Of a stretch of 64,000 nucleotides of DNA, positions 14,817-30,334 are shown piece after piece. Source of the DNA: Legionella fallonii LLAP-10. GTDB lineage: Bacteria; Pseudomonadota; Gammaproteobacteria; Legionellales; Legionellaceae. The notes below the pieces were generated by a model. The model was not told where the DNA came from and made no database searches. It worked only from the letters and a program-made list of their open reading frames with translations. The position numbers and the translations under genes are program-made. Every line of letters starts with the position of its first letter. The stretch's first letter is position 1. The stretch lies in assembly GCF_000953135.1 (NCBI RefSeq), contig NZ_LN614827.1, positions 301,001-365,000 of the forward strand. The letters run 5' to 3'.

Positions 14817-15929
14817 TTAATAGCGTGTTAAGCGGTGATTCACCGTTTCCATCCAACTAATGATCCCTCCACGTAAATTACTTATGTGTTGAAACCCCGC
14901 ATTTTTTAGCTGCTGACACACTGTTGCACTGCGCATACCCGATTTGCAATACACGACTATTGGTTTATCTTGCAGTAAAACGCGTTGTGCTAGTTGGCTG
15001 GAGAAGGACGATAAGGGCATGTGTGTGCCTCCAATGTGGCATATATCCCGTTCATAAGGCTCTCGAACATCGAGTAATTGTATGGCATCAGAGTCCGCGG
15101 CTAACAGCTGTGCCAAATCGCTCGCTGTTATTTCGGGAATATCAGCTAAAAAGGCTTGGCATTGGTTCATATGCTCATGAAATTCAATGCTTGGGTGTTG
15201 AGTACAATCATGTTTGGTAATATCAAAATGCTTAAATTGCATGGTTAATAAGTCCATGCTTAATAAGGTACCCGATAAAACGTGTTCACTGCCTAAAATA
15301 ATTTTAATCGCTTCCATCGCTTGCAAACAGCCCGCGACGCCTGGCAAGACACCTAAAACACCCGATAGAGAACAATTAGGTGACATATTCGCTGGAGGAG
15401 GGGCGGGATATAAGCACTGATAGCATGGACCACGATTATAATTAAAAACACTTAACTGGGCTTCATATTGATAGATACTTGCGGAAATCAACGGCTTTTC
15501 TAAGGAGCGACAAACGCTATTTAACAGGTATCTTGTAGAGTAATTATCACTGGCGTCGAGTACCAAATCATAATCAGCAACGATATTCGATGCATTGGCT
15601 GCTGACAAAAAGTGTTGATAAATTTCTATAGAGACATGGGAGTTAAGCGAACGCAAGCGTTCCCCTATAACTAACGCTTTATTACGACCAATATCTTGTT
15701 CAGTAAATAAAATTTGTCGTTGCAGGTTACTTAATTCAATTTGGTCTCCATCCATGATCCCTAAAGTGCCTATGCCACTGGCTGCTAAATATTGCAATGC
15801 GGGACAACCCAATCCTCCGCCACCTACACACAATACTCTGGCGTTTTTGAGTTTTGTTTGTCCTTCCTTGCCAATAACCGGTAAATGGCGACTGTAACGG
15901 AGCAGTTCTTCCTGGTTTAATGAGTGCAT
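14817..15929 (-). CDS. MoeB/ThiF-type E1 with C-terminal rhodanese domain
   Basis: 370 residues. Residues 1-245 are an E1 adenylyltransferase: RYSRHLPVIG, nucleotide loop VGGGGLGCPAL (35-45), QRQILF, LDASDNYSTRYLLN, NCSLSGVLGVLPG with candidate catalytic C186. The first zinc pair is C169-x-x-C172; the second, normally CxxC, reads C242-TQH. Residues ~270-370 are a rhodanese domain with active loop CKSGMR (C338). Family role: adenylate the C-terminal Gly of a ubiquitin-like carrier and convert it to a thiocarboxylate using rhodanese-borne persulfide. Its gene starts two bases after the carrier gene stops, so the pair is translationally linked, and a TfuA gene precedes them. This context, within a YcaO/TfuA cluster, argues for sulfur supply to the peptide rather than molybdopterin or thiamine. 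Confidence 0.88.
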   Translation of the reverse strand: MHSLNQEELLRYSRHLPVIGKEGQTKLKNARVLCVGGGGLGCPALQYLAASGIGTLGIMDGDQIELSNLQRQILFTEQDIGRNKALVIGERLRSLNSHVSIEIYQHFLSAANASNIVADYDLVLDASDNYSTRYLLNSVCRSLEKPLISASIYQYEAQLSVFNYNRGPCYQCLYPAPPPANMSPNCSLSGVLGVLPGVAGCLQAMEAIKIILGSEHVLSGTLLSMDLLTMQFKHFDITKHDCTQHPSIEFHEHMNQCQAFLADIPEITASDLAQLLAADSDAIQLLDVREPYERDICHIGGTHMPLSSFSSQLAQRVLLQDKPIVVYCKSGMRSATVCQQLKNAGFQHISNLRGGIISWMETVNHRLTRY

Positions 15930-15931
15930 TT

Positions 15932-16198
15932 TTACCCTCCCACAAGAGCGGTGACAATATCGATGTTATCGTTTTCGCTGATAGGAATATCTTGCAGTTG
16001 ATTTAAATTTTTCCCATTCACATAAATATTCACATAAGGGGTTAATGCACCATCGCTGTCGAGAATATTAGCCCGAAGTTTTTCATAATATTGGCACAGT
16101 AAGGGAATGAGTTGAGATGTATTATCAATAGGTAATTCAAGTTGATTTTGGTTGTCGGTGAAACGAACCAAAGAGGAATGCACGTTGACTTTAGCCAT
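15932..16198 (-). CDS. ThiS/MoaD-like sulfur carrier protein
   Basis: 88 residues with the beta-grasp pattern VNVHSSLVRFTDNQ ... PYVNIYVNGKNLNQL ... ISENDNIDIVTALVGG. The protein ends exactly in Gly-Gly, the site adenylated and thiocarboxylated by E1 enzymes. It is most like the MoaD/CysO branch. The E1-rhodanese gene follows after two bases. Probable role: carry sulfide equivalents to the TfuA/YcaO thioamidation step (inference). Confidence 0.88.
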   Translation of the reverse strand: MAKVNVHSSLVRFTDNQNQLELPIDNTSQLIPLLCQYYEKLRANILDSDGALTPYVNIYVNGKNLNQLQDIPISENDNIDIVTALVGG

Positions 16199-16265: not shown

Positions 16266-16303
16266 AAAAAAGCATCCGTCTCTCAACGAGGTCTAATGCT
16301 TTA
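16266..16303 (-). terminator. Intrinsic terminator downstream of first tfuA-like gene
   Basis: Read on the minus strand, a 7-bp outer stem aaagcat/atgcttt closes an imperfect inner hairpin and is followed by T6. It overlaps the tfuA stop by a few bases. It may reduce read-through into the carrier/E1 pair, which would then also need its own promoter. Confidence 0.6.
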
Positions 16304-17713
16304 TTGGTGGTGTTCATTAAACATGATTTGCGCATCATAAATCCATTGATAATATTCAACTTTCACAGAACTTAGCGCGTGCACAGAAGAGGCCATTAAA
16401 TAGGCATGCAGTAGAGAAGTAAACAGGGGGCGGCTAACAGGGATATTGGCAAGCCACATCTTAAATTGCTGTTGGGTATAATGACGCCAGATTTTTAATT
16501 GCTTGAGATGATGTGTTAAATAATGTTTTGAAATAATTAAATTAGGCTGTTTCATCTGTTGGTTAATGGCAAAGAGTAATACCAGGATAACCTTTAGAAC
16601 CTTTTGGGCACCGGCGGTAATGTGTTCAGGAAGATCATAATAATGTGCGAGAGCCGGTAGATTTTCCTGCAATTGCCGGTCAGTCAAATGAAGTAGGCAG
16701 ATCGATTGACAGATTAAAGAGTAAACCGCAGATAATGAGGCGTGGTCTTTGTAAATAGCGAAATCTTTTTCCGGTGAATATAATTGATTTTCATCGATAT
16801 AATGAATAAGCGCGGTGTTATCTATAGCGTCTTTTTCCTCAGATGAAAAAACAACTAATTTTTGCAGGAATGAAACGACTTCTGCGCGCAACATATAATC
16901 TAGAGGGGATTGCTGATGCAGAGTATAAATCTGCTGTTCGATGGTTGGTAGCCAATCTGCATTATGCTTAAAGGGAGTTGTATTGGCGAATAAAATCAAC
17001 TCTCTTAAGAAACAGGTCATGACACTGTGCTTGCTTTGCGGCGCTGATTTTTTCTTCATCGAAGAATATTGTGAGTGAATATGTTGCAGAGCCAATATGG
17101 CATCATTCTTTTTCACATCAACTAGGCCGTGCTGTTTTAGCCATTGTGAGAAATCTTGATATTGATTGCTATCAGTTTTAGATAAATGCTGAAGTGCTTT
17201 AGTTAAGGAGCGATAGGGGTAAAACTGGGCTTTACAGTAGGTTAGCAACTGATTTTGAGCTTCCTGAGTTAAGGCGTTTTCTTCCCTGGCTTTCTTACAG
17301 GTTGCTCGGATATTTACCATGGCATCATTAAGGGCACGAAACTGTCCATTGTTATCAAGATGTAAAACGGCCACTTCATCATCATCAGTCAGTATATTTT
17401 CTTTGTAATCGACAAATACTTCGCCAAAACCATGCATGCCATAATGGTGTAATTCGGCAGCGCGCAAAGCCCCCATACTGGCAGCACCCCAAACCTCTAT
17501 GCCGTTCTCTAGGGCCAACAATAGCTCTTTATGCCAAACGGCAGGTGTTGTTTCATACAACCCATCAATGATCACAATAAGTGCCGGATCTAAGCGCAAT
17601 AGCCTAATGATGTCGCCGCATTGAACAGGTGGATGATAATTGGCGTTGGGGAACAATTTAACTGCGATTTCTATGTCCAGTGATGGGCCTAAGAATACAT
17701 GAGCTGCATGCAT
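16301..17713 (-). CDS. TfuA-domain protein (copy 1)
   Basis: 470 residues. The N-terminal ~130 residues are a TfuA domain: HVFLGPSLD, YHPPVQCGDIIRLLRL, IIDGLYE, PAVWHKELLLALE, GAASMGALRAAEL, YGMHGFG, DDDEVAVLH. The rest is a helical region that the second copy shares at lower similarity. TfuA proteins pair with YcaO enzymes and are needed for backbone thioamidation in known systems. This copy is divergent from the barrel/YcaO operon and points towards the sulfur carrier and E1 genes, linking it to sulfur delivery. The C-terminal 340 residues are much longer than a bare TfuA domain and unassigned. The ribosome site is weak. Confidence 0.9.
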   Translation of the reverse strand: MHAAHVFLGPSLDIEIAVKLFPNANYHPPVQCGDIIRLLRLDPALIVIIDGLYETTPAVWHKELLLALENGIEVWGAASMGALRAAELHHYGMHGFGEVFVDYKENILTDDDEVAVLHLDNNGQFRALNDAMVNIRATCKKAREENALTQEAQNQLLTYCKAQFYPYRSLTKALQHLSKTDSNQYQDFSQWLKQHGLVDVKKNDAILALQHIHSQYSSMKKKSAPQSKHSVMTCFLRELILFANTTPFKHNADWLPTIEQQIYTLHQQSPLDYMLRAEVVSFLQKLVVFSSEEKDAIDNTALIHYIDENQLYSPEKDFAIYKDHASLSAVYSLICQSICLLHLTDRQLQENLPALAHYYDLPEHITAGAQKVLKVILVLLFAINQQMKQPNLIISKHYLTHHLKQLKIWRHYTQQQFKMWLANIPVSRPLFTSLLHAYLMASSVHALSSVKVEYYQWIYDAQIMFNEHHQ

Positions 17714-17817: not shown

Positions 17818-18555
17818 ATGAAAAAAAAGCAACTATTTATTTGTGTGATGGGAATATTAGCTAACAGTGCTTATGCTGGCACTATGGGTGATGTAGCCGT
17901 TAAAGATTACTTTATTCCTTTCGTCGTAGGGGAGGCTGCGGTCACTTGGAATACGACAGAGTCTGTGAGCATTTTCGGAAATCCTCCAAGCCTAGACAAG
18001 CAGTTATGGGGTGGCCGTGGTGCTGTTGGTATCGCTCATTCCTCCCCTAATCGTTTTGGCTATACTGCTGAGATTGGTTGGGGATACTATGGTAGCACCT
18101 CATCATCTAACTCCGGTACGTCTACTGGCGGAACCTTAACCATTTCTAATGATAGTTATTTATATGGTTTTGATTTGTTAGCCGGGGTAACTTATAACTT
18201 TGATCCGTTCCAATTGTACTTAAAAGGCGGAGCAATGGCGGAGAATCGCCGTACTAAGGGTTTGGCGGTGTTCAATAATGTCAATAATGGTAAGAGTTAT
18301 GTCTCAACGAATACCATTAATGCCATCGCTACCAATGTCTTACCCGAAATTAAGGTAGGAGGTCTGTATTCTCTTAATGAGCATATTAGTCTTACCCTCG
18401 CGTATATGCATGTCTTTGGAAATAACGATTTTGCAGCAACAGTCTCCGGTGCTTTTTCAAACCCTTCTGCAACAACAAGTATTTCTTCTGTAGCTAATAC
18501 ACAGAACCCCTCACTTGATAGCCTTTTATTTGGATTGGTTTATCAATTCGCATAA
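17818..18555 (+). CDS. Outer-membrane beta-barrel protein
   Basis: 245 residues with a signal peptide MKKKQLFICVMGILANSAYA|GT and alternating amphipathic strands ending in a C-terminal aromatic strand (LLFGLVYQFA), the usual barrel end for Bam recognition. It resembles the small surface barrels (OmpA/opacity-like) common in Legionella. It is the first gene of the rightward operon, 29 bp before the first ycaO start, so it may be co-transcribed with the RiPP genes. It could be a self-protection or outer-membrane exit component, or just a neighbour. Confidence 0.85.
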   Translation: MKKKQLFICVMGILANSAYAGTMGDVAVKDYFIPFVVGEAAVTWNTTESVSIFGNPPSLDKQLWGGRGAVGIAHSSPNRFGYTAEIGWGYYGSTSSSNSGTSTGGTLTISNDSYLYGFDLLAGVTYNFDPFQLYLKGGAMAENRRTKGLAVFNNVNNGKSYVSTNTINAIATNVLPEIKVGGLYSLNEHISLTLAYMHVFGNNDFAATVSGAFSNPSATTSISSVANTQNPSLDSLLFGLVYQFA

Positions 18556-18584
18556 ATGTTGATGTGAATGAAGGAATAGATGAG

Positions 18585-19766
18585 ATGTTGGATTTAGGCG
18601 GAACGTATCGTGCGGTAAGTCCTGAAGAAACTTTAGATAAGATTGTACCGATGTTATGGCCCATTTTTGGCATTACGCGAGTGGCGAATATTACTGGTCT
18701 TGATGATTTGAATATTCCCACTTATATTGCCATTAGGCCTGACTCAAAAATTTTATCTACAGCACAAGGTAAAGGAGTGACGCATGAACTTGCTAAAATT
18801 TCTGCCATTATGGAGTCTATAGAAAGCTGGCATGCTGAACGACTTTTACCGCCTAAACTATTTGGATGTTACCGACAATTATGTAAACAACATTCGATGA
18901 TAGCGCCTGAGGACTTGGTGAATGGCAATTTTGGTTTTACTCTAGATGCACTACAGCAAAAAGAGTTAGCCTGGTCCAGCGGTGTTGAATTAAATACTGG
19001 GAAAGAAATCTATTTTCCCAGTTCGTTAATTGATCTAGATTCCCATATACTAAACGACAATCGATTAGGCTGTTTCCCAGCGACATCGAATGGCCTGGCT
19101 TCCGGTAACTCTTTAGACGAAGCTATTTGTCATGGTATTTTCGAGGTGATAGAGCGACACTGTTGGGCGCTTGCCGAACACTCTGCTCCACGCTATATCG
19201 ATAGTGCAACTATTAAGGCCACACATCTGCTGGCTCTTTTAAATAAGGCGAATAGCGACTCCATCCAGTTTAAAATTTGCGAGCTGACTACTGAGCTTGG
19301 GGTACCGGCTTATAGCGCAGTCCTTTTTGATAGGAGAGGAACTCGACAGCTGGATTTTTTTATTGGCGCAGGGGCCCATTTGTCTAGTGTGGTTGCCTTA
19401 TCTCGTGCGGTAACAGAAGCTATCCAATCGAGACTTACTATGATCTCTGGTTCAAGGGATGATATTTTTCCTGCTAACTATCAATTTAAGAAAAAATTTA
19501 CGCGTAATGACACAGCAGGTTTTCATTCAAAGCATCAAGCAGCATTTGTAGAAACGAAGGTTCCTGATGATTTTACTCGCTGTATTGATGAATTACTGCA
19601 ACGACTGAAGCAACAAGGCTTCGAGCAAGTGATTGTGTATAATCATACGCGTAGCGAGTTAGGTATTCCTGTCGTTCATGTCATTATTCCTGGGATGGCT
19701 TTTGACTGGTTTAAGCACAAAACACAAGCGTATGTCCCTGATTTTTTTTGTGAACACGCACGATGA
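18585..19766 (+). CDS. YcaO-domain protein (copy 1)
   Basis: 393 residues from the ATG at 18585 (AAGGA with 9-base spacing; a GTG at 18564 lacks a good site, and this start aligns with the second copy). ATP-binding motifs are intact: HELAKISAIMESIESWHAE, NGLASGNSLDEAICHGIFEVIER, and SRAVTEAIQSRLT with SGSRDD. YcaO enzymes phosphorylate a backbone amide oxygen so that a nucleophile can replace it. The PxPxP C-terminus of azoline-forming cyclodehydratases is absent and no cyclodehydratase partner domain is fused. Together with TfuA this fits thioamide formation (inference). It overlaps the next gene by 4 bp (ATGA). Confidence 0.93.
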   Translation: MLDLGGTYRAVSPEETLDKIVPMLWPIFGITRVANITGLDDLNIPTYIAIRPDSKILSTAQGKGVTHELAKISAIMESIESWHAERLLPPKLFGCYRQLCKQHSMIAPEDLVNGNFGFTLDALQQKELAWSSGVELNTGKEIYFPSSLIDLDSHILNDNRLGCFPATSNGLASGNSLDEAICHGIFEVIERHCWALAEHSAPRYIDSATIKATHLLALLNKANSDSIQFKICELTTELGVPAYSAVLFDRRGTRQLDFFIGAGAHLSSVVALSRAVTEAIQSRLTMISGSRDDIFPANYQFKKKFTRNDTAGFHSKHQAAFVETKVPDDFTRCIDELLQRLKQQGFEQVIVYNHTRSELGIPVVHVIIPGMAFDWFKHKTQAYVPDFFCEHAR

Positions 19767-20944
19767 GTGAGATGATTGACTTAGGTGGCACGGTGCGTGC
19801 GGTCAGCGCTGAAAAAACCTTAATGAACATTGAGCCTATGCTCTGGGACAAATTTGGTATTACTCGAGTGGCCAATGTCACAGGATTAGATGATATTGGT
19901 ATTCCTACCTATATTGCTATTAGACCTGGTGCTAAATTGTTAACCACAGCTCAGGGAAAAGGCATTACTCACGAGCTGGCTAAAGTTTCTGCCATGATGG
20001 AATCGATTGAGGGGTGGCATTGTGAACGTATGGCTCCTCCTGCTTTATTTGGTTCTTATCAGAAACTGAATGATCATTATCCTATGCTGACCTTGAGCCC
20101 CCATATTAATCATGGTCCTTTTGCCTGGGGGGACATCCAATCCTTGGCCATGCCCTGGGGAAAAGGCAGGGAACTTATTAGCAATCAGGAAATACATTTT
20201 CCCTATACAACATTTTATGTAAATACCACTTTTTTTCAGCCCGGATATCGCTATTTTCCGCCAACAACTAATGGCTTGGCCTCTGGAAATACGCTTGAGG
20301 AAGCGATTTGTCATGGGGTATTTGAAGTGTTAGAGCGTGAATTTACTGTAGAAAATTTATTTGTATCACAATACAACCAAGTCGATTTAACCAGCATCAC
20401 CTCGCCACATTTGCTTGCTTTAATTAACAGTATTCAACGTAAAAATCTTCGCTTAGAAGTTTGGGATATAAGTACCAAAATGAATATTCCCGCTTATCTC
20501 ACTATTTTGCATAATCCCGATGAAATAAGAAATGTGGGAATGATGATGGGAACCGGGGCTCATTTTTCTAGTGTGGTCGCCCTATCACGCGCTATTACCG
20601 AGGCGATTCAGGCCCGTTTAACTATTATTTCAGGTTCACGAGACGATCAGACTCCGCGCGTATATAAAAAGATAAAAGGAGTTCGCGGTGATTATGATAA
20701 GATGTTTGCAAAAACCAGCATGCACAAGACACCATTTATTGAAACCAAGCTTCCGAAGGATTACAGTTTCTCTCAATGTCTTAAAGACTTATTAAACATT
20801 GTAAGAGAACATGGGTTTGAGCAAGTTATTGTTTACAATCACACCCGTGATGATATTAATATTCCGGTGGTGCATGTAATGATTCCAGGACTACGTTATC
20901 TGCATGGGACTTGTTTTTCTTGCTCTTTATCCCGAGTATCTTAA
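19763..20944 (+). CDS. YcaO-domain protein (copy 2)
   Basis: 393 residues, a paralogue of the preceding protein and similar over its whole length. The ATP site is intact: HELAKVSAMMESIEGWHCER (E71, E80, E83), NGLASGNTLEEAICHGVFEVLER (170-192), SRAITEAIQARLT, SGSRDD. The C-terminus (TCFSCSLSRVS) differs from copy 1 and also lacks PxPxP. The ATG overlaps the previous stop, so translation is coupled. Two ycaO genes side by side suggest two modification sites, a heterodimer, or one active and one helper subunit; both keep the ATP residues, so both may be active. Confidence 0.93.
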   Translation: MSEMIDLGGTVRAVSAEKTLMNIEPMLWDKFGITRVANVTGLDDIGIPTYIAIRPGAKLLTTAQGKGITHELAKVSAMMESIEGWHCERMAPPALFGSYQKLNDHYPMLTLSPHINHGPFAWGDIQSLAMPWGKGRELISNQEIHFPYTTFYVNTTFFQPGYRYFPPTTNGLASGNTLEEAICHGVFEVLEREFTVENLFVSQYNQVDLTSITSPHLLALINSIQRKNLRLEVWDISTKMNIPAYLTILHNPDEIRNVGMMMGTGAHFSSVVALSRAITEAIQARLTIISGSRDDQTPRVYKKIKGVRGDYDKMFAKTSMHKTPFIETKLPKDYSFSQCLKDLLNIVREHGFEQVIVYNHTRDDINIPVVHVMIPGLRYLHGTCFSCSLSRVS

Positions 20945-20956
20945 GTGAGGCAAGAG

Positions 20957-22414
20957 ATGTCAGCATATGAAACACACGTTTTTTTGGGACCTACGCTTGA
21001 TTTGCAGACAGCTAAAAGCTATTTAAACGATGCCCATTATCATCCACCAGTTCAGTGTGGCGATATGATTCGCTTATTACGATTGCAACCCAAGCGAATT
21101 ATTTTGATTGATGGATTATACGAACAAGTACCGGCTGTGTGGCATAAAGAAATCATGCTGGCACTAGAACAGGGGATTGAGGTTTATGGTGCAGCTAGTA
21201 TGGGGGCGTTGCGTGCCGCCGAATTGCATCGATACGGGATGATTGGTATAGGCAAAATATTTCAGGACTTTGCCACCAATCAACTAACTGATGATGATGA
21301 GGTCGCTGTATTACACCAAGATATTGCTCAGGGCTCATTACCATTAAACGATGCTATGGTGAATATTCGTGAAACATTAGCTCAGGCTTATCAAGCAAAA
21401 ATCATTAGTAGTCCTATGCAACAAGCATTATTAACGCACTGTAAATCGCAATTTTATTTCAATAGATCATTAAAACGCGCCATCATGCAAATGGATGCTG
21501 AGTATCAAGAAGAGCGCCTTAATCTATGTGATTGGTTGAATCAATATGGCATCATTGATGTAAAACGTCAGGATGCTATTGCTGTGCTGGAATATGTACA
21601 GAAAGCTCCTCTGCCGCTAACCGATAGGCAGCCGAAACAAGGAAAAACTGGTGCGATACCCTATACGAAGTTTATTGCCTCTTTGGTGGATGATGTAGTG
21701 GCAACAGCTTTTTCAACGGTGCAATCATGGTTTCCTGATAAGGAAAAAACACTTACTTTATTGTCTCTGCAAAATCCAGAGACTTACCACTTAATCACCG
21801 AATTGGCTAGGCTAATTAAAAATGCCTATTCTGTGATTAATGCAGAAGAGCTATTAGACAACGACACGCACTACCTGCATTATATAGAAGAGCATCAGCT
21901 TTATTTCCCCCCAAAGTTGTATCAATTTTTTAGTCATCATCAAGAGTTGTCTGCATTATATTTCTGGATGTTGCATTACACCTGTTTAGGAAATATCACG
22001 GAGCAAATAATAAAAAGTTATTTGCCTGCTATGGCGTTTTATTTTGATTGTGACGTTATCTTGGACTCTCAATCTAATCTAGAGTTATTATCCTACACCT
22101 TACTGTTTATCTTATTGCTGCATCAACAGCTCAATGACGAACAATTAGCTATAAAACGAAGCATCTTTGAAGAGCATTTACAGGAAATTCATTTTTGGCG
22201 GCGATATAAGCAGCATAAAGGAAGAGATGATGCGCATGATTCCTCGTCTGAGGTGCTTGATATTAAGCGAGCCTTGGATTTTGTCATGATTTATATGAAA
22301 ATCACCTACATCCATCATGGAGTGAAAGATTTTAAATTGGGTTTAGCTAAAATACCCAATTATTTTCATTGGGTTTATGATGCAATGACGCTTTATGCGC
22401 AAACGGATTGTTGA
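20957..22414 (+). CDS. TfuA-domain protein (copy 2)
   Basis: 485 residues from the ATG at 20957, with a GAGG site 6 bases upstream (a GTG at 20945 is in frame). The TfuA domain (HVFLGPTLD, YHPPVQCGDMIRLLRL, LIDGLYE, GAASMGALRAAEL, DDDEVAVLH) is nearly the same as in copy 1, while the helical C-terminal region is more diverged. It follows the two ycaO genes directly, the usual order for YcaO/TfuA pairs. Possibly one TfuA serves each YcaO. Confidence 0.9.
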   Translation: MSAYETHVFLGPTLDLQTAKSYLNDAHYHPPVQCGDMIRLLRLQPKRIILIDGLYEQVPAVWHKEIMLALEQGIEVYGAASMGALRAAELHRYGMIGIGKIFQDFATNQLTDDDEVAVLHQDIAQGSLPLNDAMVNIRETLAQAYQAKIISSPMQQALLTHCKSQFYFNRSLKRAIMQMDAEYQEERLNLCDWLNQYGIIDVKRQDAIAVLEYVQKAPLPLTDRQPKQGKTGAIPYTKFIASLVDDVVATAFSTVQSWFPDKEKTLTLLSLQNPETYHLITELARLIKNAYSVINAEELLDNDTHYLHYIEEHQLYFPPKLYQFFSHHQELSALYFWMLHYTCLGNITEQIIKSYLPAMAFYFDCDVILDSQSNLELLSYTLLFILLLHQQLNDEQLAIKRSIFEEHLQEIHFWRRYKQHKGRDDAHDSSSEVLDIKRALDFVMIYMKITYIHHGVKDFKLGLAKIPNYFHWVYDAMTLYAQTDC

Positions 22415-23320: not shown

Positions 23321-24239
23321 TGACAGCGGCATAGTATGGTTAGCCTCTTATCCCAAATCAGGTAACACTTGGTTTAGAGTGTTTTTGACGCATATTTTAA
23401 AGGGAAACTCCCTCGCTCTGAGCTTGAATAAGCATACACTTGTCGGTACAGGCTCTGCTGCGCGTTTTGTCATGGATAAAGCCTTGGGATTTGACAGCCG
23501 GTTATTGCTTGATGAGGAACTTGCAGACTTACGGCCCGCAATTTATACCTGGCATGGACAACAACCAGGAGTGCAATATTTTAAAATCCATGATGCTTAC
23601 CATGAGCCATCTAAGGGCGTTCCTATAGTCCCCAAAGAAGGAAGTCTTGCGGTCATTTATTTTATCCGTAATCCTCTCGATGTGGTGATTTCTTTTGCTC
23701 ATCATATGAATAGTTCTATTGATGATGCAATTAAGATGATGAACTCTCCCCTTTTGGCATTAAAAGGGGCGGCAGCAAAACCAATGTCACAAGCTCGTCA
23801 GCTTTGTTCTTCCTGGTCATTCCACGTAGATAGTTGGACTACAGCATGTGATACTAAGCTATTAGTATTGCGTTATGAAGATATGCATGCATCTCCCTTC
23901 GCGACCTTTTCTCAGGCTCTGGATTTCTTACAGTTGCATGTTGATGCAGAAGCTATTGTGCAAGCGCTAAAACAAAGCCAGTTTGAACAGTTGAGACAGG
24001 AGGAGCAACAATATGGATTTAGGGAAAGTGCCGCTGCCAATAGAGCTTTCTTTAGAAAAGGTATTGTTGGGGATTGGGAAAATACGCTGAAGGAGAGCCA
24101 AGTAGCGCGTATTATTGCTGATCATGGGACAGTGATGCGTCGTTTTGGTTATTTAGACGAAGACAATCGACCAATTCGCTCTCAAGGGGTATTAAAATTA
24201 AAGGAGGGAGCCAATGGAAGCCTCGATTCTTCAGCGTAA
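23313..24239 (+). CDS. PAPS-dependent sulfotransferase
   Basis: 308 residues from MASDSG. The 5'-phosphosulfate loop YPKSGNTW (13-20), the 3'-phosphate motif RNPLDVVISFAHH and the C-terminal RKGIVGDWEN are the three signatures of the sulfotransferase-1 family. It transfers sulfate from PAPS to a hydroxyl or amine. Its overlap with both neighbours places it in the RiPP operon, so O-sulfation of core Ser/Thr or of another precursor residue is the natural guess. The longer frame beginning at 23289 would overlap the upstream gene more and adds nothing to the fold. Confidence 0.92.
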   Translation: MASDSGIVWLASYPKSGNTWFRVFLTHILKGNSLALSLNKHTLVGTGSAARFVMDKALGFDSRLLLDEELADLRPAIYTWHGQQPGVQYFKIHDAYHEPSKGVPIVPKEGSLAVIYFIRNPLDVVISFAHHMNSSIDDAIKMMNSPLLALKGAAAKPMSQARQLCSSWSFHVDSWTTACDTKLLVLRYEDMHASPFATFSQALDFLQLHVDAEAIVQALKQSQFEQLRQEEQQYGFRESAAANRAFFRKGIVGDWENTLKESQVARIIADHGTVMRRFGYLDEDNRPIRSQGVLKLKEGANGSLDSSA

Positions 24240-24501
24240 AATTCAAAAGCATCCACTCGTCTGTGCAACCGTCATCGATAACGAATTAGTAGTGATGAGT
24301 AGTCAGGATAATGTTTATTATCGTATTAATGCATCAGGCATTCAGATCTGGAGTTTTCTTGAATCCCAAATATGTTCTGTGCAAACAGTTGTTGAATTTA
24401 TTGCTGATTATTATGGTTTAGAGCACAGCCAAGTATTCTCTGATGTGCAATTATTCGTTTTGCTCATGTTGGAGAAAGGCTTTTTGCAGTATGCCGATTA
24501 G
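24214..24501 (+). CDS. PqqD-like RiPP recognition element
   Basis: 95 residues with the PqqD fold pattern: HPLVCATVIDNELVVMSSQDNVYYRINASGIQIWSFLE followed by a helix ending MLEKGFLQYAD. GGAGGG precedes the ATG. PqqD-like domains bind leader peptides and present them to the modifying enzymes. It overlaps the sulfotransferase gene by 26 bp and is the last gene of the rightward modification operon. Confidence 0.9.
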   Translation: MEASILQRKIQKHPLVCATVIDNELVVMSSQDNVYYRINASGIQIWSFLESQICSVQTVVEFIADYYGLEHSQVFSDVQLFVLLMLEKGFLQYAD

Positions 24502-24508
24502 CTAATTG

Positions 24509-26014
24509 TCAGCAAACCGTTGTTGTCTCCATCACTTGCTTTATAACCTGATGAGTAATAATACGTGCTTGCTCCACCACTTGCCCTATCTCAATCATTT
24601 TAAAATGAGAGCCTTTGACCAGTTCTCCAAGAGCAAATATGCGCGAAGAGCCCGCCGCGTTTGGAGCAAGCACTTGATGGGTCTTGGTATCAATACAAAT
24701 ACCGCCTAGAGGATGTTTTTTTATCAGCTTCTGTTTGAGTAGGTTAACTAGCAGCGGCACTGTTTCAGGATTATTTCCCGAGCCTACTGCAAGAATAATA
24801 TGGTCACATAAGATGGGTTTTTCTTGTTCTAGCGCAACGGAAAAATGAGTAGGTGTTTTTACAATGTCAGTTAATCCCTTATGAACAGATAATTGTTGTC
24901 TCCGCATCATCGCGTAAATGATCTGGGCTTTATTCAAGGGAAAGGAACAAAGGAACGTCGACATTAAGCGAGCATCATTTTGCAAAAAAAGTTGTTGCTG
25001 CTCCACGGGAAATTGCGGCCAAAGCCTGAAAGTAATTTGATAAAAACAAGATAATACGGATTGCCAAGCCGTTTTATGCCGCACTGCGTGATGTATTTCA
25101 TAGCGAATACGCTCTAATGGACTTAGGCTTTGAATTAAATTGATGGTCTTAGAAAGGTCAAGCGCTTCGGGTAAATAGGGTGTTATTTCTTGTTCGAACA
25201 AGCTAATTAGCGAGGGTAGTAGAGGTTGCGAATGGCGATGAAGCAACAAATTTTGAATATTAATAGGCGTTAAATACCGCATCATGGGAATAGGATGAGA
25301 GCCTCTTACAGAACTTAATAATCCTAATCGTGAAATCATCGTGATTGGTCCTTGATGTTTTTGTTGCCGCAATTTCAGTGCTACATCAATGGCGGTTAAA
25401 CGGGAGCCAATAATACCCACGTGATAATGGGTTGGCAGATTTTGATACGCCTGCATATCCCAAGGATTAATTTGATAATGGGGAATAAGATGAAGATGGG
25501 CGAATAAATTGGAAGGTAAATGACCTATGGCTAAAATGACTTGGGTGACCTGATAGGTCACTTCTTGGTTTTTATGACGAGCATGAATTTGGTAATGAGC
25601 TGAATCTATTGGAAAAATATCCAATACATCATGCTCTATACAGGGAATTATCTCTAATGCGTTGCTATTTTGAAGGGTAGCAAATTGCTCTTGAGCATAT
25701 TGACCAAAATAATGTCGTGCAGGAAATGTTGTTAATTGTTCTTTATATCGTGCAGTTAACCACTGTGAAAAATGGTGATATTTTTCCGGGATTAACGTCA
25801 TATATTCTTTAGGCAGGTTAATGCAAAAGGCTTCTTCCCTCAAGCTATAAGGCGTTCCCCAGCCAATATCTGAGCTTTTTTCAAATAAAAGGATGTGGAT
25901 TTTTGTTTCGAGGTTTAACTCATTTAATGCCTGACTCAATTGTAGGCATAAAGACACTCCTGCAGGTCCCCCTCCCACTATAGCTATTTTTATTAAACCA
26001 GAGTCATTGAGCAT
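24509..26014 (-). CDS. FAD/NAD(P)-binding oxidoreductase-like protein
   Basis: 501 residues from an ATG at 26014 that has AGGA 6 bases upstream (an in-frame start at 26095 adds 27 residues of poor match). An N-terminal dinucleotide fold IKIAIVGGGPAGVSLCLQL is followed by FEKSSDIGWGTPYS, a typical FAD-NAD(P)-binding domain (PF13454-like), and a second nucleotide motif HVGIIGSRLTAIDVALKL. The C-terminal half carries AGSSRIFALGELVKGSHF. It converges with the pqqD-like gene and is transcribed away from the precursor gene. It could hydroxylate or oxidise the peptide, reduce a cofactor, or be unrelated to the cluster. Confidence 0.8.
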   Translation of the reverse strand: MLNDSGLIKIAIVGGGPAGVSLCLQLSQALNELNLETKIHILLFEKSSDIGWGTPYSLREEAFCINLPKEYMTLIPEKYHHFSQWLTARYKEQLTTFPARHYFGQYAQEQFATLQNSNALEIIPCIEHDVLDIFPIDSAHYQIHARHKNQEVTYQVTQVILAIGHLPSNLFAHLHLIPHYQINPWDMQAYQNLPTHYHVGIIGSRLTAIDVALKLRQQKHQGPITMISRLGLLSSVRGSHPIPMMRYLTPINIQNLLLHRHSQPLLPSLISLFEQEITPYLPEALDLSKTINLIQSLSPLERIRYEIHHAVRHKTAWQSVLSCFYQITFRLWPQFPVEQQQLFLQNDARLMSTFLCSFPLNKAQIIYAMMRRQQLSVHKGLTDIVKTPTHFSVALEQEKPILCDHIILAVGSGNNPETVPLLVNLLKQKLIKKHPLGGICIDTKTHQVLAPNAAGSSRIFALGELVKGSHFKMIEIGQVVEQARIITHQVIKQVMETTTVC

Positions 26015-26235
26015 GAGCATTCCTGTTGGCCGTGTGATTATGTCTCTTCTTAACCTCAGAAAAAATATCATCCCAACGAAGTGAGGGAGCTCCAATTTAT
26101 TGAGAAGTTATGTGATTATAGATTAAGGCATTGTTATTTATATGAAAAGATTAAATATTGCTATGATTTTGTGTAGATTCAATTTTTAAATTTGGGTTAG
26201 AATAGCAATCAGGAACTTGCTAGAGGGATATTAAA

Positions 26236-26430
26236 ATGTCACAAAAGACAGAAGAATTTTTAAAACAATGTAGTGAGAATCAGCAAAAGTTAAATGAAAG
26301 CGTAGGATATTGTGCCCCATCTCTCGAGGCACTTGATCTCGACGATTTGATTGATACTCGCGGAGGGAGTGCTACCAGTACAACAACGACAGGAGCAGCA
26401 GTTGCTGCTGGTGTTTCCGCTGTATTTTAA
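26236..26430 (+). CDS. RiPP precursor peptide with Gly-Gly leader
   Basis: 64 residues, with a GAGGG ribosome site. Residues 1-44 look like a leader: charged N-terminal half (MSQKTEEFLKQCSENQQKL), then SLEALDLDDLIDTRGG, an acidic helix ending in Gly43-Gly44, the cleavage site of C39 peptidase exporters. Residues 45-64 form the core: SATSTTTTG followed by Ala/Val/Gly and ending GVSAVF. The core has seven Ser/Thr residues before or at position 52 plus one later Ser, and no Cys, Lys, Asp or Glu. The two Cys (12, 26) are in the leader. The next gene is the matching peptidase-exporter, 18 bp away. A candidate -10 (TAGAAT) lies near 26200. Confidence 0.88.
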   Translation: MSQKTEEFLKQCSENQQKLNESVGYCAPSLEALDLDDLIDTRGGSATSTTTTGAAVAAGVSAVF

Positions 26431-26448
26431 TTCTAGATTTTATTCATA

Positions 26449-28596
26449 ATGCCGCAGTTTCACTTAAAACGTGTCAAAACTCCTATTTTGATGCAGATGG
26501 AAACAGTAGACTGTGGTGCTGCTGCCCTTGGAATCATTTTGGCATACCATAGGTGTTATATGCCTCTTGAAGTACTCCGTACCGAATGTTTAGTCGCTCG
26601 CGACGGAGTAAGTGTATCTAATCTTATTAAGGCTGCTCGCCGTTATGGAATGGATGCTACTGTTTATCAACAAGGGTTATTTCCAGACATTAAATTGCCT
26701 GCCATTTTATTTTGGAATTGCAAACATTATGTAGTTCTTGAAGGAAGTAAAGGGAATAAGGTTTATATCAATGATCCCAAGCAAGGCCGGCAGGTGATTG
26801 ATTGGCAGATGTTCAACAAGCAGTTTTCAGGAATAGTCATTCAATTGCAAGTAAATGCTGATTTTAGAAAAACCAGCAAGCCCAGACACGGGGCCGTCGA
26901 TTTATTGCCTTTTTTTCGTGAGCAGCGACGCTCATTAGCCTGGTTGTCTTTGAGTGTTATCATGCTGTCATTGCTTAATGTAAGCCCATTAATTTTTACT
27001 AAGTTATTTGTGGATAAAATCGTTTCCCATCATGGGAGCTATAGTACGAGTTGGCTTTTAGCGGTAATGAGTTGTCTATTAATACTGCAGTTGTTGGTGT
27101 CCTACAGCAGTAGAAAGTTATTTCGTGTTTTAGAGACACGATTTGCAGTACAGTTGAGTAAAAAACTTATTCATCACTTGTTACACTTACCATTGCGATT
27201 TTTTGCTTTTAGACGCGCTGGAGATTTAGTTTATCGCATACAAGCTGTCGATCGTCTCGCTGGGGCGCCATGGTCTGCTTTTTGTTCTATGGTTATTGCC
27301 ATGAGCCAAAGCACTATTTCCTTTATACTGATGTTTCTTTATAGTCCTTTATTGAGCGTAATTGCCTTAGTTGGTATGACTATTTATTTTGCTGCAATAA
27401 AGTATTGTCAAAAAAAATGGCAGCATATTGCCCATGTCGTTAAGGCACGTATGACCGAGTTAACTGGGTTAACGGCCACTTACCTCTCTACGGTGACGCA
27501 AATCAAAGCACAATGTTCGGAGGAGGTCTACTTCGTCAAATGGCAGCAATTTCTAAACAATTATTTAGGTGCTCATCATCAGGTATCGGGTAAGCAACAG
27601 CTGCTTCAGTTAATCTCTTTATCGCTCTTCTCCTCAGGTTATCTTGGTGTATTAGTCTTAGGCATTTATTTTGTTAGCCAAAATCGAATGACTCTTGGGG
27701 AAATGATGGCATGCCAGGTTTTATTCTTGTCATTTAATGAAGCATTGATGCACCATATGAAATTGGGTCATCAACGTGAGCAAATAGAAGCTGATTTACA
27801 AAGCATTGCTGATATTACTCAGTACCCTATGGAATCGATAAAAACGCAATCTGTAGTTAAGAGGCAACAATCTATGGGTAAAATCCAAGTCGTTGATCTC
27901 ATCTTTGGTTATAGCCGTGAATTCAAGCCTTTGTTTAATCAACTTCATCTAACTATTGAACCAGGAACCCAAGTGGCTTTGGTTGGAGCTTCGGGCTGTG
28001 GCAAAAGTACGCTAATCCATTTGCTTGCGGGTCTTTATCAGCCATGGTCTGGTACCATTTTGATTGATGGTATTCCCTTATCTGATTATTCAATAGCAGA
28101 AAGAGCGCGCTTGATCGGCGTTGTTGGCCAACAACAATTTTTTTATCAAGGCAGTATTAAAGAGAATCTTTGTTTGTGGCAAGACGGTTATTCCAATACA
28201 GAGATCATGGCCGCATTACAGATGGCTTGTCTTGATGATTGGATAACACAAATTGAGGATGGACTTGAATATCAGTTATTGGATGGAGCGACTAATATCA
28301 GCGGCGGGCAGCGGCAACGACTGGAAATTGCGCGGACGCTATTGGCTAAACCCCCAATTTTACTGCTAGATGAGGCAACCAGCTCCTTAGATCCGCTGAT
28401 TGAAGAACAGATTAAGAAAAACTTGCGTCGCTATGCTGCGACCAAAATTGTCGTGGCGCATAGGCTCAATACCATTCACGATGCAGATACCCTCTTTATC
28501 CTCAAAACCGGGCAAATAGTTGATTGTGGTTCGCAAAAACAGCTGATTACCAAAAAGAGTCCTGCATTTGCAGAGTTATTCGCTCTATCAAACTAA
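26449..28596 (+). CDS. C39 peptidase-containing ABC exporter (PCAT/bacteriocin type)
   Basis: 715 residues. An N-terminal C39 peptidase domain has Q16, catalytic C22 in METVDCGAAAL, H93 in KHYVVLEG and D109 in YINDP. Six membrane helices occupy ~155-430. The nucleotide domain has Walker A GASGCGKST, signature ISGGQRQR and Walker B ILLLDEATSSLD. Such proteins cut the leader after Gly-Gly and export the peptide. It directly follows the precursor gene, which carries Gly-Gly at residues 43-44. Confidence 0.95.
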   Translation: MPQFHLKRVKTPILMQMETVDCGAAALGIILAYHRCYMPLEVLRTECLVARDGVSVSNLIKAARRYGMDATVYQQGLFPDIKLPAILFWNCKHYVVLEGSKGNKVYINDPKQGRQVIDWQMFNKQFSGIVIQLQVNADFRKTSKPRHGAVDLLPFFREQRRSLAWLSLSVIMLSLLNVSPLIFTKLFVDKIVSHHGSYSTSWLLAVMSCLLILQLLVSYSSRKLFRVLETRFAVQLSKKLIHHLLHLPLRFFAFRRAGDLVYRIQAVDRLAGAPWSAFCSMVIAMSQSTISFILMFLYSPLLSVIALVGMTIYFAAIKYCQKKWQHIAHVVKARMTELTGLTATYLSTVTQIKAQCSEEVYFVKWQQFLNNYLGAHHQVSGKQQLLQLISLSLFSSGYLGVLVLGIYFVSQNRMTLGEMMACQVLFLSFNEALMHHMKLGHQREQIEADLQSIADITQYPMESIKTQSVVKRQQSMGKIQVVDLIFGYSREFKPLFNQLHLTIEPGTQVALVGASGCGKSTLIHLLAGLYQPWSGTILIDGIPLSDYSIAERARLIGVVGQQQFFYQGSIKENLCLWQDGYSNTEIMAALQMACLDDWITQIEDGLEYQLLDGATNISGGQRQRLEIARTLLAKPPILLLDEATSSLDPLIEEQIKKNLRRYAATKIVVAHRLNTIHDADTLFILKTGQIVDCGSQKQLITKKSPAFAELFALSN

Positions 28597-28618
28597 AGTG
28601 GCTAAGGAGACTGATTCG

Positions 28619-30334
28619 TTGAGCATAAGAGCAGAAGAGCAAGTGATAAGCCTTAAAAAATTGCTTTATTCTTTTTGGTTAGAAAATAAATTCTTATGTT
28701 GCTGCATGATGCTGTTATTTCTTCTGACGGCACTAATCAGTATGTTTCGCCCTGTTATCGCCGGGTCTGTGTTTCATGGCTATCAAATAAAACAGGTTAG
28801 ACTCATAACTGACTCGGTGTATGCCTTATTAGTATGCAATGGATTTATTATTATTTTGAGTGCGGTACGAGCGCTCATTTATATGCGTTGTGAAATAAAA
28901 GTCCTATTGCAGCTGCAAAAAGCGGCAATGAAAAAGGTATTACAGCTACCCTTAGATTTTTTTGATCGCTATACTACGGGGGATTTAGTTCATCGTGTTT
29001 TGTGGGTCACTTCACTCAGTCAGTTATTGCAGGTTAACCAATTAGGCGTTGTTTTTTCATTTTTGAGTTTGCTCGTCAGTTTTAGCCTGATGTTTTATTT
29101 TAATTGGCAGCTGACACTCGTGGTGTTTCTCTTAGTCGCTCTTTTTACCTTGTTTGCCGTATTGAGTTCTTTGCGTCTTTTGCCGTATTTGGAAGAACAT
29201 GCAACGGATGTTGGACGGGCTTATGGTTTTTTATATCAGGTAATTAATGGGATTACACGCATTAAATTATTTTCTCGTCAATCTAATGTAGCGTCTTTAT
29301 GGAATGCAATGTACGTTTCTTCTCGTCATAGGCTACAAAGCACTTACAGTAAAGGCGTTTTAGGTTATGCCTTTTTTAATAGCATTCCGCTATTGCTTTT
29401 GCTCATTGTTTTTGCTGTGAGCTTACTACAACGCGAGAGCATCTCCTCTCCGTATTTTGTCGTATTTTTTTGTGGCTTATGTTTGCTAATGACCAATATA
29501 GTCACGTTTTACCTCAATGCGGGGGGACTGATCGACGCCTTGATCGCCTATAGACGTATTCAACCTATTCTTGATTTTCCCATTGAAACAACATCAACTA
29601 ATTCGATTGGCACGGATGAGTTTATTGAGCATATTAGTATGCGAGACCTTTATTTTTCGTATCCTAATTCCAAAATATCTGTTTTAAAGGGAGTCAATTG
29701 CCAGATCTCCCAAGGACAGCATGTGGCTTTCGTCGGTTTATCTGGTTCAGGGAAATCTACGCTGATAAAATTATTATTGGGATTTTATTTTCCTCAGCAA
29801 GGCCAGGTTGCCATCAATGGCAAACCCTTGCAAGAGCTTGATTTACCTCGATTGCGTTCTAATATTGGCGTCGCTTTGCAAGATGGTCAATTAATGAATG
29901 GTTCTATTTTGGAAAATATTATTGGCCACTCAGCTGCTACAGAAGAGGAGGCTTGGCAAATGCTTGCTGAACTAGGAATGCATCAATTTATTCATGCATT
30001 ACCTATGGGCATTCACACCGTTGTAGCACAACACATGAATCTTTTGTCCGGTGGACAAAAACAAATGTTATTAATAGCAAGGGCTTTAGTCGGTAAGCCA
30101 CAACTATTGATATTAGATGAGGCCACTAATTCCTTGGATGAGGTAGTTCAGGAAATGGTTATTAAGCGCATCAATCAATTAGCAATAACTCGAATTACCA
30201 TTGCTCATCGCCTGTCTACTGTCAAAGATGTAGATAAAATCTTTGTGTTGCATCAAGGAGTCATTGCTGAGGCTGGCAGCTACCAGCAATTGCTTAAGCA
30301 AGAAGGTTTCTTTGCTCAATTAGCCACGAGTTAG
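28619..30334 (+). CDS. ABC exporter (fused membrane/ATPase), second transporter of the cluster
   Basis: 571 residues from a TTG at 28619 with AGGAG 9 bases upstream; an ATG at 28568, inside the previous gene, is the alternative. Membrane helices fill ~25-290, followed by an ATPase with Walker A GLSGSGKST, signature LLSGGQKQ and LLILDEATNSLD. It has no C39 domain. It may form a heterodimer with the peptidase-exporter, give immunity, or move the product by itself. No membrane-fusion protein or TolC-like gene is found nearby. Confidence 0.9.
   Translation: MSIRAEEQVISLKKLLYSFWLENKFLCCCMMLLFLLTALISMFRPVIAGSVFHGYQIKQVRLITDSVYALLVCNGFIIILSAVRALIYMRCEIKVLLQLQKAAMKKVLQLPLDFFDRYTTGDLVHRVLWVTSLSQLLQVNQLGVVFSFLSLLVSFSLMFYFNWQLTLVVFLLVALFTLFAVLSSLRLLPYLEEHATDVGRAYGFLYQVINGITRIKLFSRQSNVASLWNAMYVSSRHRLQSTYSKGVLGYAFFNSIPLLLLLIVFAVSLLQRESISSPYFVVFFCGLCLLMTNIVTFYLNAGGLIDALIAYRRIQPILDFPIETTSTNSIGTDEFIEHISMRDLYFSYPNSKISVLKGVNCQISQGQHVAFVGLSGSGKSTLIKLLLGFYFPQQGQVAINGKPLQELDLPRLRSNIGVALQDGQLMNGSILENIIGHSAATEEEAWQMLAELGMHQFIHALPMGIHTVVAQHMNLLSGGQKQMLLIARALVGKPQLLILDEATNSLDEVVQEMVIKRINQLAITRITIAHRLSTVKDVDKIFVLHQGVIAEAGSYQQLLKQEGFFAQLATS

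What the first reader, a model, noticed from the sequence alone, without database searches (positions are those of the whole stretch)
14817..30334. A RiPP gene cluster joining YcaO/TfuA, a dedicated sulfur carrier with E1, and a sulfotransferase
Seen directly: two YcaO, two TfuA, a Gly-Gly-ended carrier, an E1-rhodanese, an HPr-kinase-like protein, a sulfotransferase, a PqqD-like protein, a flavoprotein, a Gly-Gly precursor, a C39 exporter and another exporter, packed with overlaps. Known: YcaO+TfuA makes backbone thioamides; E1+carrier makes protein thiocarboxylate. Inference: an in-cluster sulfur relay feeds thioamidation of a short Ser/Thr/Ala core, which is then sulfated and exported. I know no described RiPP with this set, but cannot search.
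Basis: partly seen in the sequence, partly recalled or inferred. Interest (0 to 1): 0.95.

Follow-up and report, generated by a model that had tools for sequence, protein, structure and literature searches.

The report
Twice-sulfurised peptide cluster in Legionella kin
A genome of the Legionella family carries a compact 14-gene cluster around one small peptide whose active end is strongly conserved across a family of 22 precursors; its enzymes are predicted to swap backbone oxygen for sulfur with a sulfur-carrier pair of its own and would then likely add sulfate (and perhaps phosphate) before export, a combination that I did not find in the papers I could search.

Summary
The set occurs in 4 of 143 genomes of the window's family (13-14 of 14 genes each).

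Precursors form two families of 22 (commonest cores SATSTTTTGAAVAAGVSAVF and ESTTVAAVSIGVSAVSA): cores are 90-92% identical within a family, leaders 51-66%. 43 of 44 leaders carry the YxxPx[hydrophobic] motif of lasso-type leaders and the PqqD protein resembles lasso recognition proteins, but no lasso cyclase or protease is present. YcaO and TfuA each form two old paralogue lines.

The E1/carrier pair looks dedicated: in the three other carriers the cluster E1 is the only E1 over cut-off and no strong ThiG is found. In the window's genome, however, the thiamine operon has no E1 of its own, so sharing is possible. All four carriers encode PAPS-making enzymes, as do 43 of 139 non-carriers.

Single parts have precedents (ThiS or MoeB near TfuA; sulfotransferase near mycobacterial YcaO-TfuA; methanobactin with thioamide and sulfate). 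The combination looks new. Product chemistry is untested.

The parts
14817..15929 (-). E1-like adenylyltransferase fused to rhodanese domain (predicted carrier activator and sulfur donor)
   Evidence: Pfam ThiF E=4.7e-80 and Rhodanese E=1.7e-14; cluster E1s form their own clade
15932..16198 (-). ThiS/MoaD-like sulfur carrier, 88 aa, C-terminal ...TALVGG
   Evidence: Pfam ThiS E=1.5e-5 over cut-off; NCBIfam MoaD family below cut-off; relatives in the 3 other clusters, one of them cut short
16301..17713 (-). TfuA1, 470 aa, with about 250-residue C-terminal extension of unknown function
   Evidence: Pfam TfuA E=2.1e-43; own clade with G129 and G005 orthologues
17818..18555 (+). Outer-membrane-like protein with signal-peptide-like start, conserved member of the cluster
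   Evidence: 36-59% identical relatives in the 3 other clusters; no Pfam match; no solved relative
18564..19766 (+). YcaO1
   Evidence: Pfam YcaO E=6.1e-74; best NCBIfam McrA-glycine thioamidation YcaO, below cut-off; aligns to MJ1094 6pe3
19763..20944 (+). YcaO2, 51% identical to YcaO1
   Evidence: Pfam YcaO E=1e-70; separate clade from YcaO1; alignment
20945..22414 (+). TfuA2, 489 aa
   Evidence: Pfam TfuA E=8.2e-44; aligns to solved TfuA 6xp8 over residues 12-220, E=4.6e-30
22424..23320 (+). HprK/PEPCK-fold P-loop kinase-like protein
   Evidence: Weak Pfam and NCBIfam hits; model pLDDT 92.6 matches PEPCK and HprK folds; invariant G135-K136-S137 and D153 in 15 homologues
23313..24239 (+). 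PAPS-dependent-type sulfotransferase
   Evidence: Pfam Sulfotransfer_1 E=4e-28; nearest solved relatives Teg12, Teg14; start codon read
24214..24501 (+). Discrete PqqD-type RiPP recognition element
   Evidence: Pfam PqqD E=6.6e-9; best NCBIfam lasso_PqqD_Bac, below cut-off; solved lasso RRE TbiB1 5v1u E=1.6e-5
24509..26017 (-). FAD/NAD(P)-binding oxidoreductase-like protein
   Evidence: Pfam NAD_binding_9 E=3.3e-25; present in 3 of 4 clusters, not found on the G005 contig
26236..26430 (+). Precursor peptide, 64 aa; leader 26236-26367, core 26368-26427 (SATSTTTTGAAVAAGVSAVF)
   Evidence: 44 precursors (this one included) in two core families
26449..28596 (+). C39 peptidase-containing ABC exporter
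   Evidence: Peptidase_C39 E=7.1e-31, ABC_tran E=2.9e-32; best NCBIfam NHLM_micro_ABC1, below cut-off
28568..30334 (+). Partner ABC exporter without peptidase
   Evidence: ABC_membrane and ABC_tran; best NCBIfam NHLM_micro_ABC2, below cut-off

Best explanation
The 14-gene cluster encodes one conserved Gly-Gly-leader peptide and enzymes that are predicted to put sulfur into it twice: as backbone thioamides fed by the cluster's own carrier/E1 relay, and likely as sulfate esters from PAPS, before it would be cleaved and exported. Inferred steps, in order: (1) the PqqD protein binds the leader through its YxxPx[hydrophobic] motif, as in lasso peptides; (2) the E1 adenylates the C-terminal Gly-Gly of the carrier and its rhodanese domain supplies persulfide, giving a thiocarboxylate; (3) the two TfuA proteins release that sulfur to the two YcaO enzymes, which activate backbone amides of the core with ATP and swap O for S, each YcaO/TfuA line probably serving its own sites or step; (4) the sulfotransferase, with PAPS made by the CysD/CysNC-type enzymes encoded elsewhere in the genome, sulfates Ser/Thr hydroxyls, and the HprK-fold kinase may phosphorylate another; (5) the C39 exporter cuts after Gly-Gly and, with the second ABC protein and perhaps the outer-membrane-like protein, releases a modified 20-residue peptide. 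Shown here: the genes, their families, their co-conservation, and the strongly conserved core. Not shown: any chemical step or the product.
For: Family matches for the steps. Same set in 4 of 143 family genomes, 13-14 of 14 genes each, in different gene orders. 44 precursors, cores 90-92% against leaders 51-66% mean pairwise identity within each of two families; every listed core keeps TTxAA[VI]xxxxSA. 43 of 44 leaders match [YW]xxPx[LVIFAM] at -20/-19, and the PqqD aligns to lasso RREs. YcaO1/YcaO2 (four genomes) and TfuA1/TfuA2 (three genomes; G097 left out) each fall into two lineages shared across genomes, so both pairs are old and kept. Cluster E1 is the only E1 over cut-off in G097, G129 and G005, where ThiG has only weak partial hits or none. 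E1 also sits by YcaO-TfuA in 5 of 11 other TfuA loci of the window's class, one as a partial match. APS kinase in 4 of 4 carriers against 47 of 143 family genomes overall; a CysD-family gene next to it in all 4. Kinase fold confirmed. Chemistry precedent: TfuA hydrolyses ThiS-COSH and feeds YcaO (PMC13185837 passages; PMC13063428 passage).
Against: No product or enzyme activity measured. In one of four carriers (G097) the carrier and both TfuA genes look interrupted in the assembly, so the relay may be dispensable or decaying there. The window's thiamine operon lacks an E1, so the cluster E1 may not be exclusive. The genome holds a second YcaO/TfuA/E1/ThiS locus that could cross-talk. Most NCBIfam matches are below equivalog cut-offs. 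G005 lacks the flavoprotein and has a nitroreductase-family protein nearby, which fits azoline oxidation in that relative. 43 of 139 non-carrier genomes also have APS kinase, so PAPS supply is not specific; G097 and G129 have a second PAPS-reductase-family protein that could use PAPS. The window's PqqD did not find G005's PqqD-position protein by BLAST; that assignment rests on the alignment.
Confidence: 0.66

Rival explanations
1. The YcaO enzymes make oxazolines or methyloxazolines on the Ser/Thr-rich core (linear azol(in)e peptide), the ThiF-domain protein acting only as a docking partner.
For: YcaO is the usual cyclodehydratase; both core types keep several Ser/Thr (8 of 20 and 6 of 17 residues in the commonest cores); G005's contig carries a nitroreductase-family protein, the family of azoline oxidases (recalled).
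Against: Two TfuA proteins; YcaO best NCBIfam matches are the McrA-thioamidation YcaO; the E1 is a full ThiF domain plus rhodanese next to a Gly-Gly carrier; no nitroreductase in the window's cluster.
Confidence: 0.12
2. The carrier/E1 pair is mainly a thiamine (cofactor) system that happens to sit beside the RiPP genes.
For: In the window's genome the thiO-thiS-thiG-thiDE operon has no E1, and the cluster E1 is the only chromosomal one over cut-off; six sister thi loci, picked from the top E1 hits, have an E1 near thiO/S/G.
Against: Carriers G097, G129 and G005 keep the pair with no strong ThiG; cluster E1s form a 100/99 clade apart from the main thi-operon E1 clade; the carrier gene lies at the other end of the cluster in G097 and G129 yet stays in it.
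Confidence: 0.1
3. The pair is shared: the RiPP cluster's E1 also charges the thiamine carrier in this species, so a secondary-metabolite gene has taken over a vitamin step.
For: Thiamine operon with ThiS and ThiG but no E1.
Against: A second E1 on contig C2 could do it instead; no biochemical test.
Confidence: 0.35
4. The sulfotransferase and kinase act on something other than the peptide, or only one of them acts on it.
For: Both would compete for hydroxyls (inference); APS kinase also occurs in 43 of 139 non-carriers.
Against: Sulfotransferase, kinase and PqqD lie side by side in all four clusters (G005's PqqD by alignment); HprK-like kinases with discrete RREs phosphorylate RiPP precursors in lasso and LPP systems (PMC10368454, PMC13381572, passages).
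Confidence: 0.35

Closest known systems
TfuA-related thioamidated RiPP clusters (thioviridamide family, thiovarsolins; genome mining in PMC8120280, PMC6511847)
   Same: Adjacent ycaO and tfuA near a precursor gene; MoeB or ThiS is drawn in some clusters, two tfuA or several ycaO in others (PMC8120280, sections and legends read); a sulfotransferase near mycobacterial YcaO-TfuA (PMC6511847, passage).
   Different: Here all of these occur together with a discrete lasso-type RRE, an HprK-fold kinase, a C39 exporter pair and an outer-membrane-like protein; Legionella is not named in PMC8120280's main text.
McrA-glycine thioamidation (YcaO/TfuA with thiocarboxylated ThiS)
   Same: Same enzyme families; NCBIfam's McrA-thioamidation models are the best matches of both YcaO and both TfuA; relay chemistry as stated in PMC13185837 and PMC13063428 (passages).
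   Different: Substrate here is a short, probably exported peptide; E1 and carrier are encoded inside the cluster; enzymes doubled; matches below equivalog cut-offs.
Methanobactin (Methylocystis type)
   Same: Backbone thioamide plus sulfonated Thr in one RiPP, with PF00685 sulfotransferase and FAD enzyme in some operons (PMC3621798 passages).
   Different: [quoted passage not shown] Cys-bearing, copper-binding peptide. 41 of 44 cores here have no Cys.
Paeninodin-type lasso peptides and linear polyphosphorylated peptides (PMC8498205, PMC10368454, PMC13381572; passages)
   Same: Discrete PqqD RRE, Y/WxxP leader motif and HprK-like kinase; a putative sulfotransferase gene in some Firmicutes lasso clusters.
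   Different: No lasso cyclase or B2 protease here; a C39 exporter for the leader; YcaO/TfuA instead.
RaxX, tyrosine-sulfated RiPP (PMC8872720, passages)
   Same: Gly-Gly leader, cluster sulfotransferase, peptidase-containing ABC exporter.
   Different: None of the 44 cores here has a Tyr; no thioamidation is mentioned in the passages seen.

Membership tests
YcaO/TfuA thioamidated RiPP | YcaO and TfuA genes adjacent | tested here: met
   YcaO2 19763-20944 directly followed by TfuA2 20945-22414
YcaO/TfuA thioamidated RiPP | Leader-core precursor encoded in the cluster and co-inherited | tested here: met
   26236-26430; present in all 4 carrier clusters
YcaO/TfuA thioamidated RiPP | Thioamide in the product | not testable with these tools
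   No mass or NMR data
Thioviridamide-like thioamitide | Core ending in Cys for the C-terminal aminovinyl-cysteine ring (feature recalled) | tested here: not met
   All 22 type A cores end in F and all 22 type B cores in A
Lasso peptide | Discrete PqqD-type RRE and YxxP leader motif | tested here: met
   (models below cut-off); motif 2-3 residues further from the cleavage site than the -17 given in PMC10368454
Lasso peptide | Asn-synthetase-like cyclase (C) and transglutaminase-like peptidase (B2) | tested here: not met
   Neither family among the Pfam hits of the 14 cluster proteins
Proteusin/NHLP or Nif11 peptide | Nitrile-hydratase-like or Nif11-like leader | tested here: not met
   Precursor matches no Pfam or NCBIfam model at E<=0.1, though the exporters resemble the NHLM pair below cut-off
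Methanobactin | MbnB/MbnC maturation pair and Cys-bearing core | tested here: not met
   No such family among Pfam hits of the cluster proteins; window core has no Cys
Linear azol(in)e peptide (TOMM) | Flavin dehydrogenase and E1-like/Ocin-ThiF docking protein with the YcaO | tested here: inconclusive
   No nitroreductase in the window's cluster but one beside the G005 cluster; the ThiF protein here has a full ThiF domain with rhodanese
TfuA/ThiS sulfur relay | Gly-Gly-ended ThiS-like carrier with its own E1 and sulfur-donating domain | tested here: met
   Gly-Gly tail in G000, G129 and G005, cut short in G097
TfuA/ThiS sulfur relay | TfuA fold and candidate Ser/Lys hydrolase residues | tested here: inconclusive
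   TfuA2 aligned to 6xp8 with the ASMGALRA and D[VI]KRQDA stretches kept; which Ser and Lys are catalytic was recalled, not checked
HprK-type RiPP kinase | HprK/PEPCK P-loop fold | tested here: met
   [not shown]
HprK-type RiPP kinase | Phosphorylates the precursor | not testable with these tools
   No assay

The most novel reading that the evidence does not exclude
This is the founding locus of a new RiPP class in which a lasso-type recognition protein steers one strongly conserved core through two specialised YcaO/TfuA pairs, a dedicated sulfur-carrier relay, a PAPS sulfotransferase and an HprK-fold kinase, giving a peptide that bears thioamides, sulfate and phosphate at once; and in this species the RiPP's E1 has also taken over the thiamine operon's missing E1 step.
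Probability: 0.25. Interest if true: 0.85.

Novelty: new variant of a known kind. Interest (0 to 1): 0.7.

Why it matters
According to PMC13063428 (passage), thioamide-forming YcaO systems outside sulfide-rich habitats tend to use a thiocarboxylated carrier plus TfuA. Here carrier, E1, TfuA, YcaO and substrate are packaged together, and in three genomes no strong ThiG clouds the picture, so the relay could be studied as a closed unit. One identical core in 12 of 22 precursors of each family, with all 44 leaders different, points to a product whose exact structure matters. The combination also suggests that RiPP parts (lasso-type recognition and kinase, thioamide enzymes, exporter pair) can be mixed as modules. 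A vitamin operon that seems to lean on a secondary-metabolite E1 would be an unusual link between the two.

Tried and rejected
Chance or mis-annotation: rejected by the four-genome co-conservation. Lasso peptide: rejected, no cyclase or B2 among the Pfam hits. Proteusin/Nif11 leader: no match. Pure cofactor role of the E1/carrier: rejected for G097, G129 and G005 by the lack of a strong ThiG (the weak hits in G097 and G005 pass the cut-off only when summed with neighbours and cover 58-69 of 247 positions); left open for the window's genome. PF02597 found no ThiS in G097, G129 or G005 although the clusters there carry one, so that model is too insensitive to prove absence; I rely on ThiG instead.

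The top PqqD hits are entries named Cake, Scone, Bagel and 'Pyrrolo-quinoline quinone', matching only 25-54 residues; I disregard them and use TbiB1 and the two PqqD-named entries. HprK is absent from the 50 rows shown but present in Foldseek.

Rows dropped: the YcaO tree left out G204, the TfuA tree left out the four G097 pieces, TfuA rows were cut to 300 residues, and the partial G388 E1 and YcaO were never entered. Of 11 non-cluster TfuA loci, four are on short stretches (5-11 kb), so E1 in 5 of 11 may be an undercount; ThiS was found in 2 of those 5. No row for the window's sulfotransferase, kinase, PqqD or outer-membrane-like protein was listed in the 11 at E<=1e-3 (overlapping weaker hits hidden). 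One search scored only the 7991 candidates sharing most words, so 44 precursors may be an undercount.

Not in print: rests on the searches only; most subscription journals are not held. PMC5126622 (passages) says L. oakridgensis has bacteriocins not present in the other species of its set; this cluster may be among them, unnamed there.


Full report
What is there. The window is part of a 4,434,890-base, three-contig genome (window = G000:C1:301001-365000). Relatives in the same family group carry precursor peptides identical to ones named Legionella oakridgensis (P0008, same letters as G097) and L. massiliensis (P0018, same letters as G129), so I call it a Legionella-family genome; the tool gives neither its species nor its family name. 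Between 14817 and 30334 lie 14 genes. Pfam and NCBIfam place them as listed under parts; the precursor and the outer-membrane-like protein match no model there.

The set is a real unit. A profile of 16 precursors found matches in 4 of 143 genomes of the family group: G000, G097, G129 and G005, each in a different genus. BLAST with the window proteins recovers 14 of 14 cluster genes in G097 (three of them in pieces or cut short) and G129; in G005 13 of 14, counting a PqqD-position protein recognised only by alignment, with the flavoprotein not found on the contig. Five flanking window proteins (CAT, SDR, two unknowns, amidase) matched nothing in these stretches, which held about 1-6 kb beyond the cluster on each side. 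Gene order differs: in G097 and G129 the carrier lies at the far end beyond the second exporter; in G005 the order is rearranged.

The peptide. A second search with an alignment including the G129 and G005 peptides gave 44 precursors, the window's included (only the best 7991 candidates were scored). They fall into two families of 22. Type A cores after the Gly-Gly (Gly-Ala in one): SATSTTTTGAAVAAGVSAVF in 12 of 22, ten different cores in all. Type B: ESTTVAAVSIGVSAVSA in 12 of 22, seven different cores. All 44 leaders differ. Mean pairwise identity is 0.90 and 0.92 for cores against 0.51 and 0.66 for leaders (end-anchored, ungapped; 0.69 and 0.84 over the last 20 leader residues); two cores of one family differ at up to 6 of 20 or 5 of 17 places. 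All 17 distinct cores keep TTxAA[VI]xxxxSA. 41 of 44 lack Cys and none has Tyr. 43 of 44 leaders hold [YW]xxPx[LVIFAM] starting at -20 or -19; the exception has Cys for Tyr. PMC13381572 (passages) gives [Y/W]xxPx[L/V/I/F/A] as the motif read by discrete lasso RREs; I added M to the last class. PMC10368454 (passages) puts the motif at -17 to -12 in lasso leaders, so spacing here is 2-3 longer. The cluster's PqqD is closest to lasso-type PqqD models, below their cut-offs, and to the solved lasso RRE TbiB1.

Thioamide enzymes. Both YcaO proteins score best against the McrA-glycine thioamidation YcaO model and both TfuA proteins against its TfuA partner, below the equivalog cut-offs. TfuA2 aligns with the solved TfuA 6xp8 and YcaO1 with MJ1094 6pe3. 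Trees put YcaO1 of the four genomes in one clade (92/91) and YcaO2 in another (100/99), inside a joint 100/99 clade; TfuA1 and TfuA2 likewise split (99/97 and 97/91; three genomes). So both duplications appear to predate the split of these genera and both copies are kept, which argues for two distinct roles (inference). Each TfuA has about 250 residues beyond the TfuA domain with no family match over cut-off.

The sulfur relay. PMC13185837 and PMC13063428 (passages) state that TfuA hydrolyses thiocarboxylated ThiS and delivers sulfide for YcaO; the primary paper was not held. Here carrier and E1-rhodanese sit in the cluster. Is the pair dedicated? In G097, G129 and G005 the cluster E1 is the only E1 over cut-off, and ThiG has only weak partial matches (at most 24.8 bits with neighbours) or none, against 321-327 bits in the five of twelve examined genomes that have a strong one. 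Cluster E1s form a 100/99 clade apart from a 100/99 clade of five thi-operon E1s; a sixth thi-linked E1 (G087) lies outside both. Against exclusivity: in G000 a thiO-thiS-thiG-thiDE operon exists with no E1, while six sister thi loci have one within the fetched stretch (chosen from top E1 hits). The only other G000 E1 over cut-off is on contig C2. Either may serve thiamine. Elsewhere, E1 lies by YcaO-TfuA in 5 of 11 other TfuA loci (one a partial match), from 13 TfuA-bearing genomes among 369 of the class, and PMC8120280's legends draw MoeB and ThiS in some clusters, so the relay as such is not new.

Sulfate and phosphate. The sulfotransferase is nearest, among solved proteins by E-value, to Teg12 and Teg14. 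It would need PAPS. All 4 carriers have a strong APS kinase (206-230 bits); over the family group 47 of 143 do, so 43 of 139 non-carriers do as well. This was noticed after the fact and is not corrected for kinship. In each carrier a CysD-family gene and a gene of CysNC size lie side by side (Pfam-checked in G000). The PAPS-reductase family, which includes CysD, has one member in G000 and G005 and two in G097 and G129, so in the window's genome PAPS is not obviously headed for reduction. The kinase model (pLDDT 92.6, 15 sequences) has the PEPCK/HprK fold and an invariant GKS and Asp. HprK-like kinases with a discrete RRE phosphorylate RiPP precursors in two described systems (PMC10368454, PMC13381572, passages). 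Two precursor records and two kinase records from metagenomes report the same longest-contig lengths (11855; 18386), suggesting further clusters.

Export. A C39 peptidase exporter and a second ABC protein resemble the paired NHLM exporters, below cut-off. Cleavage after Gly-Gly would free the 20-residue core.

Weak points. G097's assembly shows the carrier and both TfuA genes interrupted; whether by decay or sequencing error I cannot say. G005 has a nitroreductase-family protein nearby, compatible with azoline chemistry in that branch. The genome has a second YcaO/TfuA/E1/ThiS locus. Nothing about the product is measured.

Verdict. Observation confirmed; interpretation partly supported. It works like a TfuA/YcaO thioamidation pathway with built-in sulfur supply; it is a variant of a known kind, novel in its combination and peptide family rather than in any one part.

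Noticed in passing
L010:13244-19739 (G000:C2, 238,761-base contig): A second, separate operon of TfuA, YcaO, E1-rhodanese, ThiS, ATP-grasp and a 420-aa unknown, beside a CsrA-family gene and TraL/TraE/TraK/TrbI-type conjugation genes. G082:C2 carries it at 72-90% identity (L041); relatives of the 420-aa unknown lie near YcaO/E1/TfuA in G498 and G256. PMC3218107's Figure 2 legend lists ycaO and tfu among genes drawn with F-type systems. Its substrate is unknown.
   Followed up: partly
L012:935-4417 (G000:C1:1603000-1609000): Thiamine operon thiO-thiS-thiG-thiDE without an E1 (ThiF), while six sister loci have one.
   Followed up: partly
L017:3199-3387, 11533-12947, 16347-17746 (G097): Carrier and both TfuA genes of the L. 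oakridgensis-like cluster appear interrupted in this assembly. Described only.
   Followed up: partly
L031:14090-14890 (G005): Nitroreductase-family protein beside the type B cluster, with no counterpart in the window's cluster.
   Followed up: no
window 16301-17713 and 20945-22414: TfuA proteins carry C-terminal extensions of about 250 residues beyond the TfuA domain, with no family match over cut-off.
   Followed up: no
window 12070-12741: Type A chloramphenicol acetyltransferase family gene over its NCBIfam cut-off, outside the conserved cluster.
   Followed up: no
window 35892-41903 and 4648-6567: A 2003-aa protein with a weak F-box-associated LRR match and a 639-aa protein with a protein-kinase match, eukaryote-like.
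   Followed up: no
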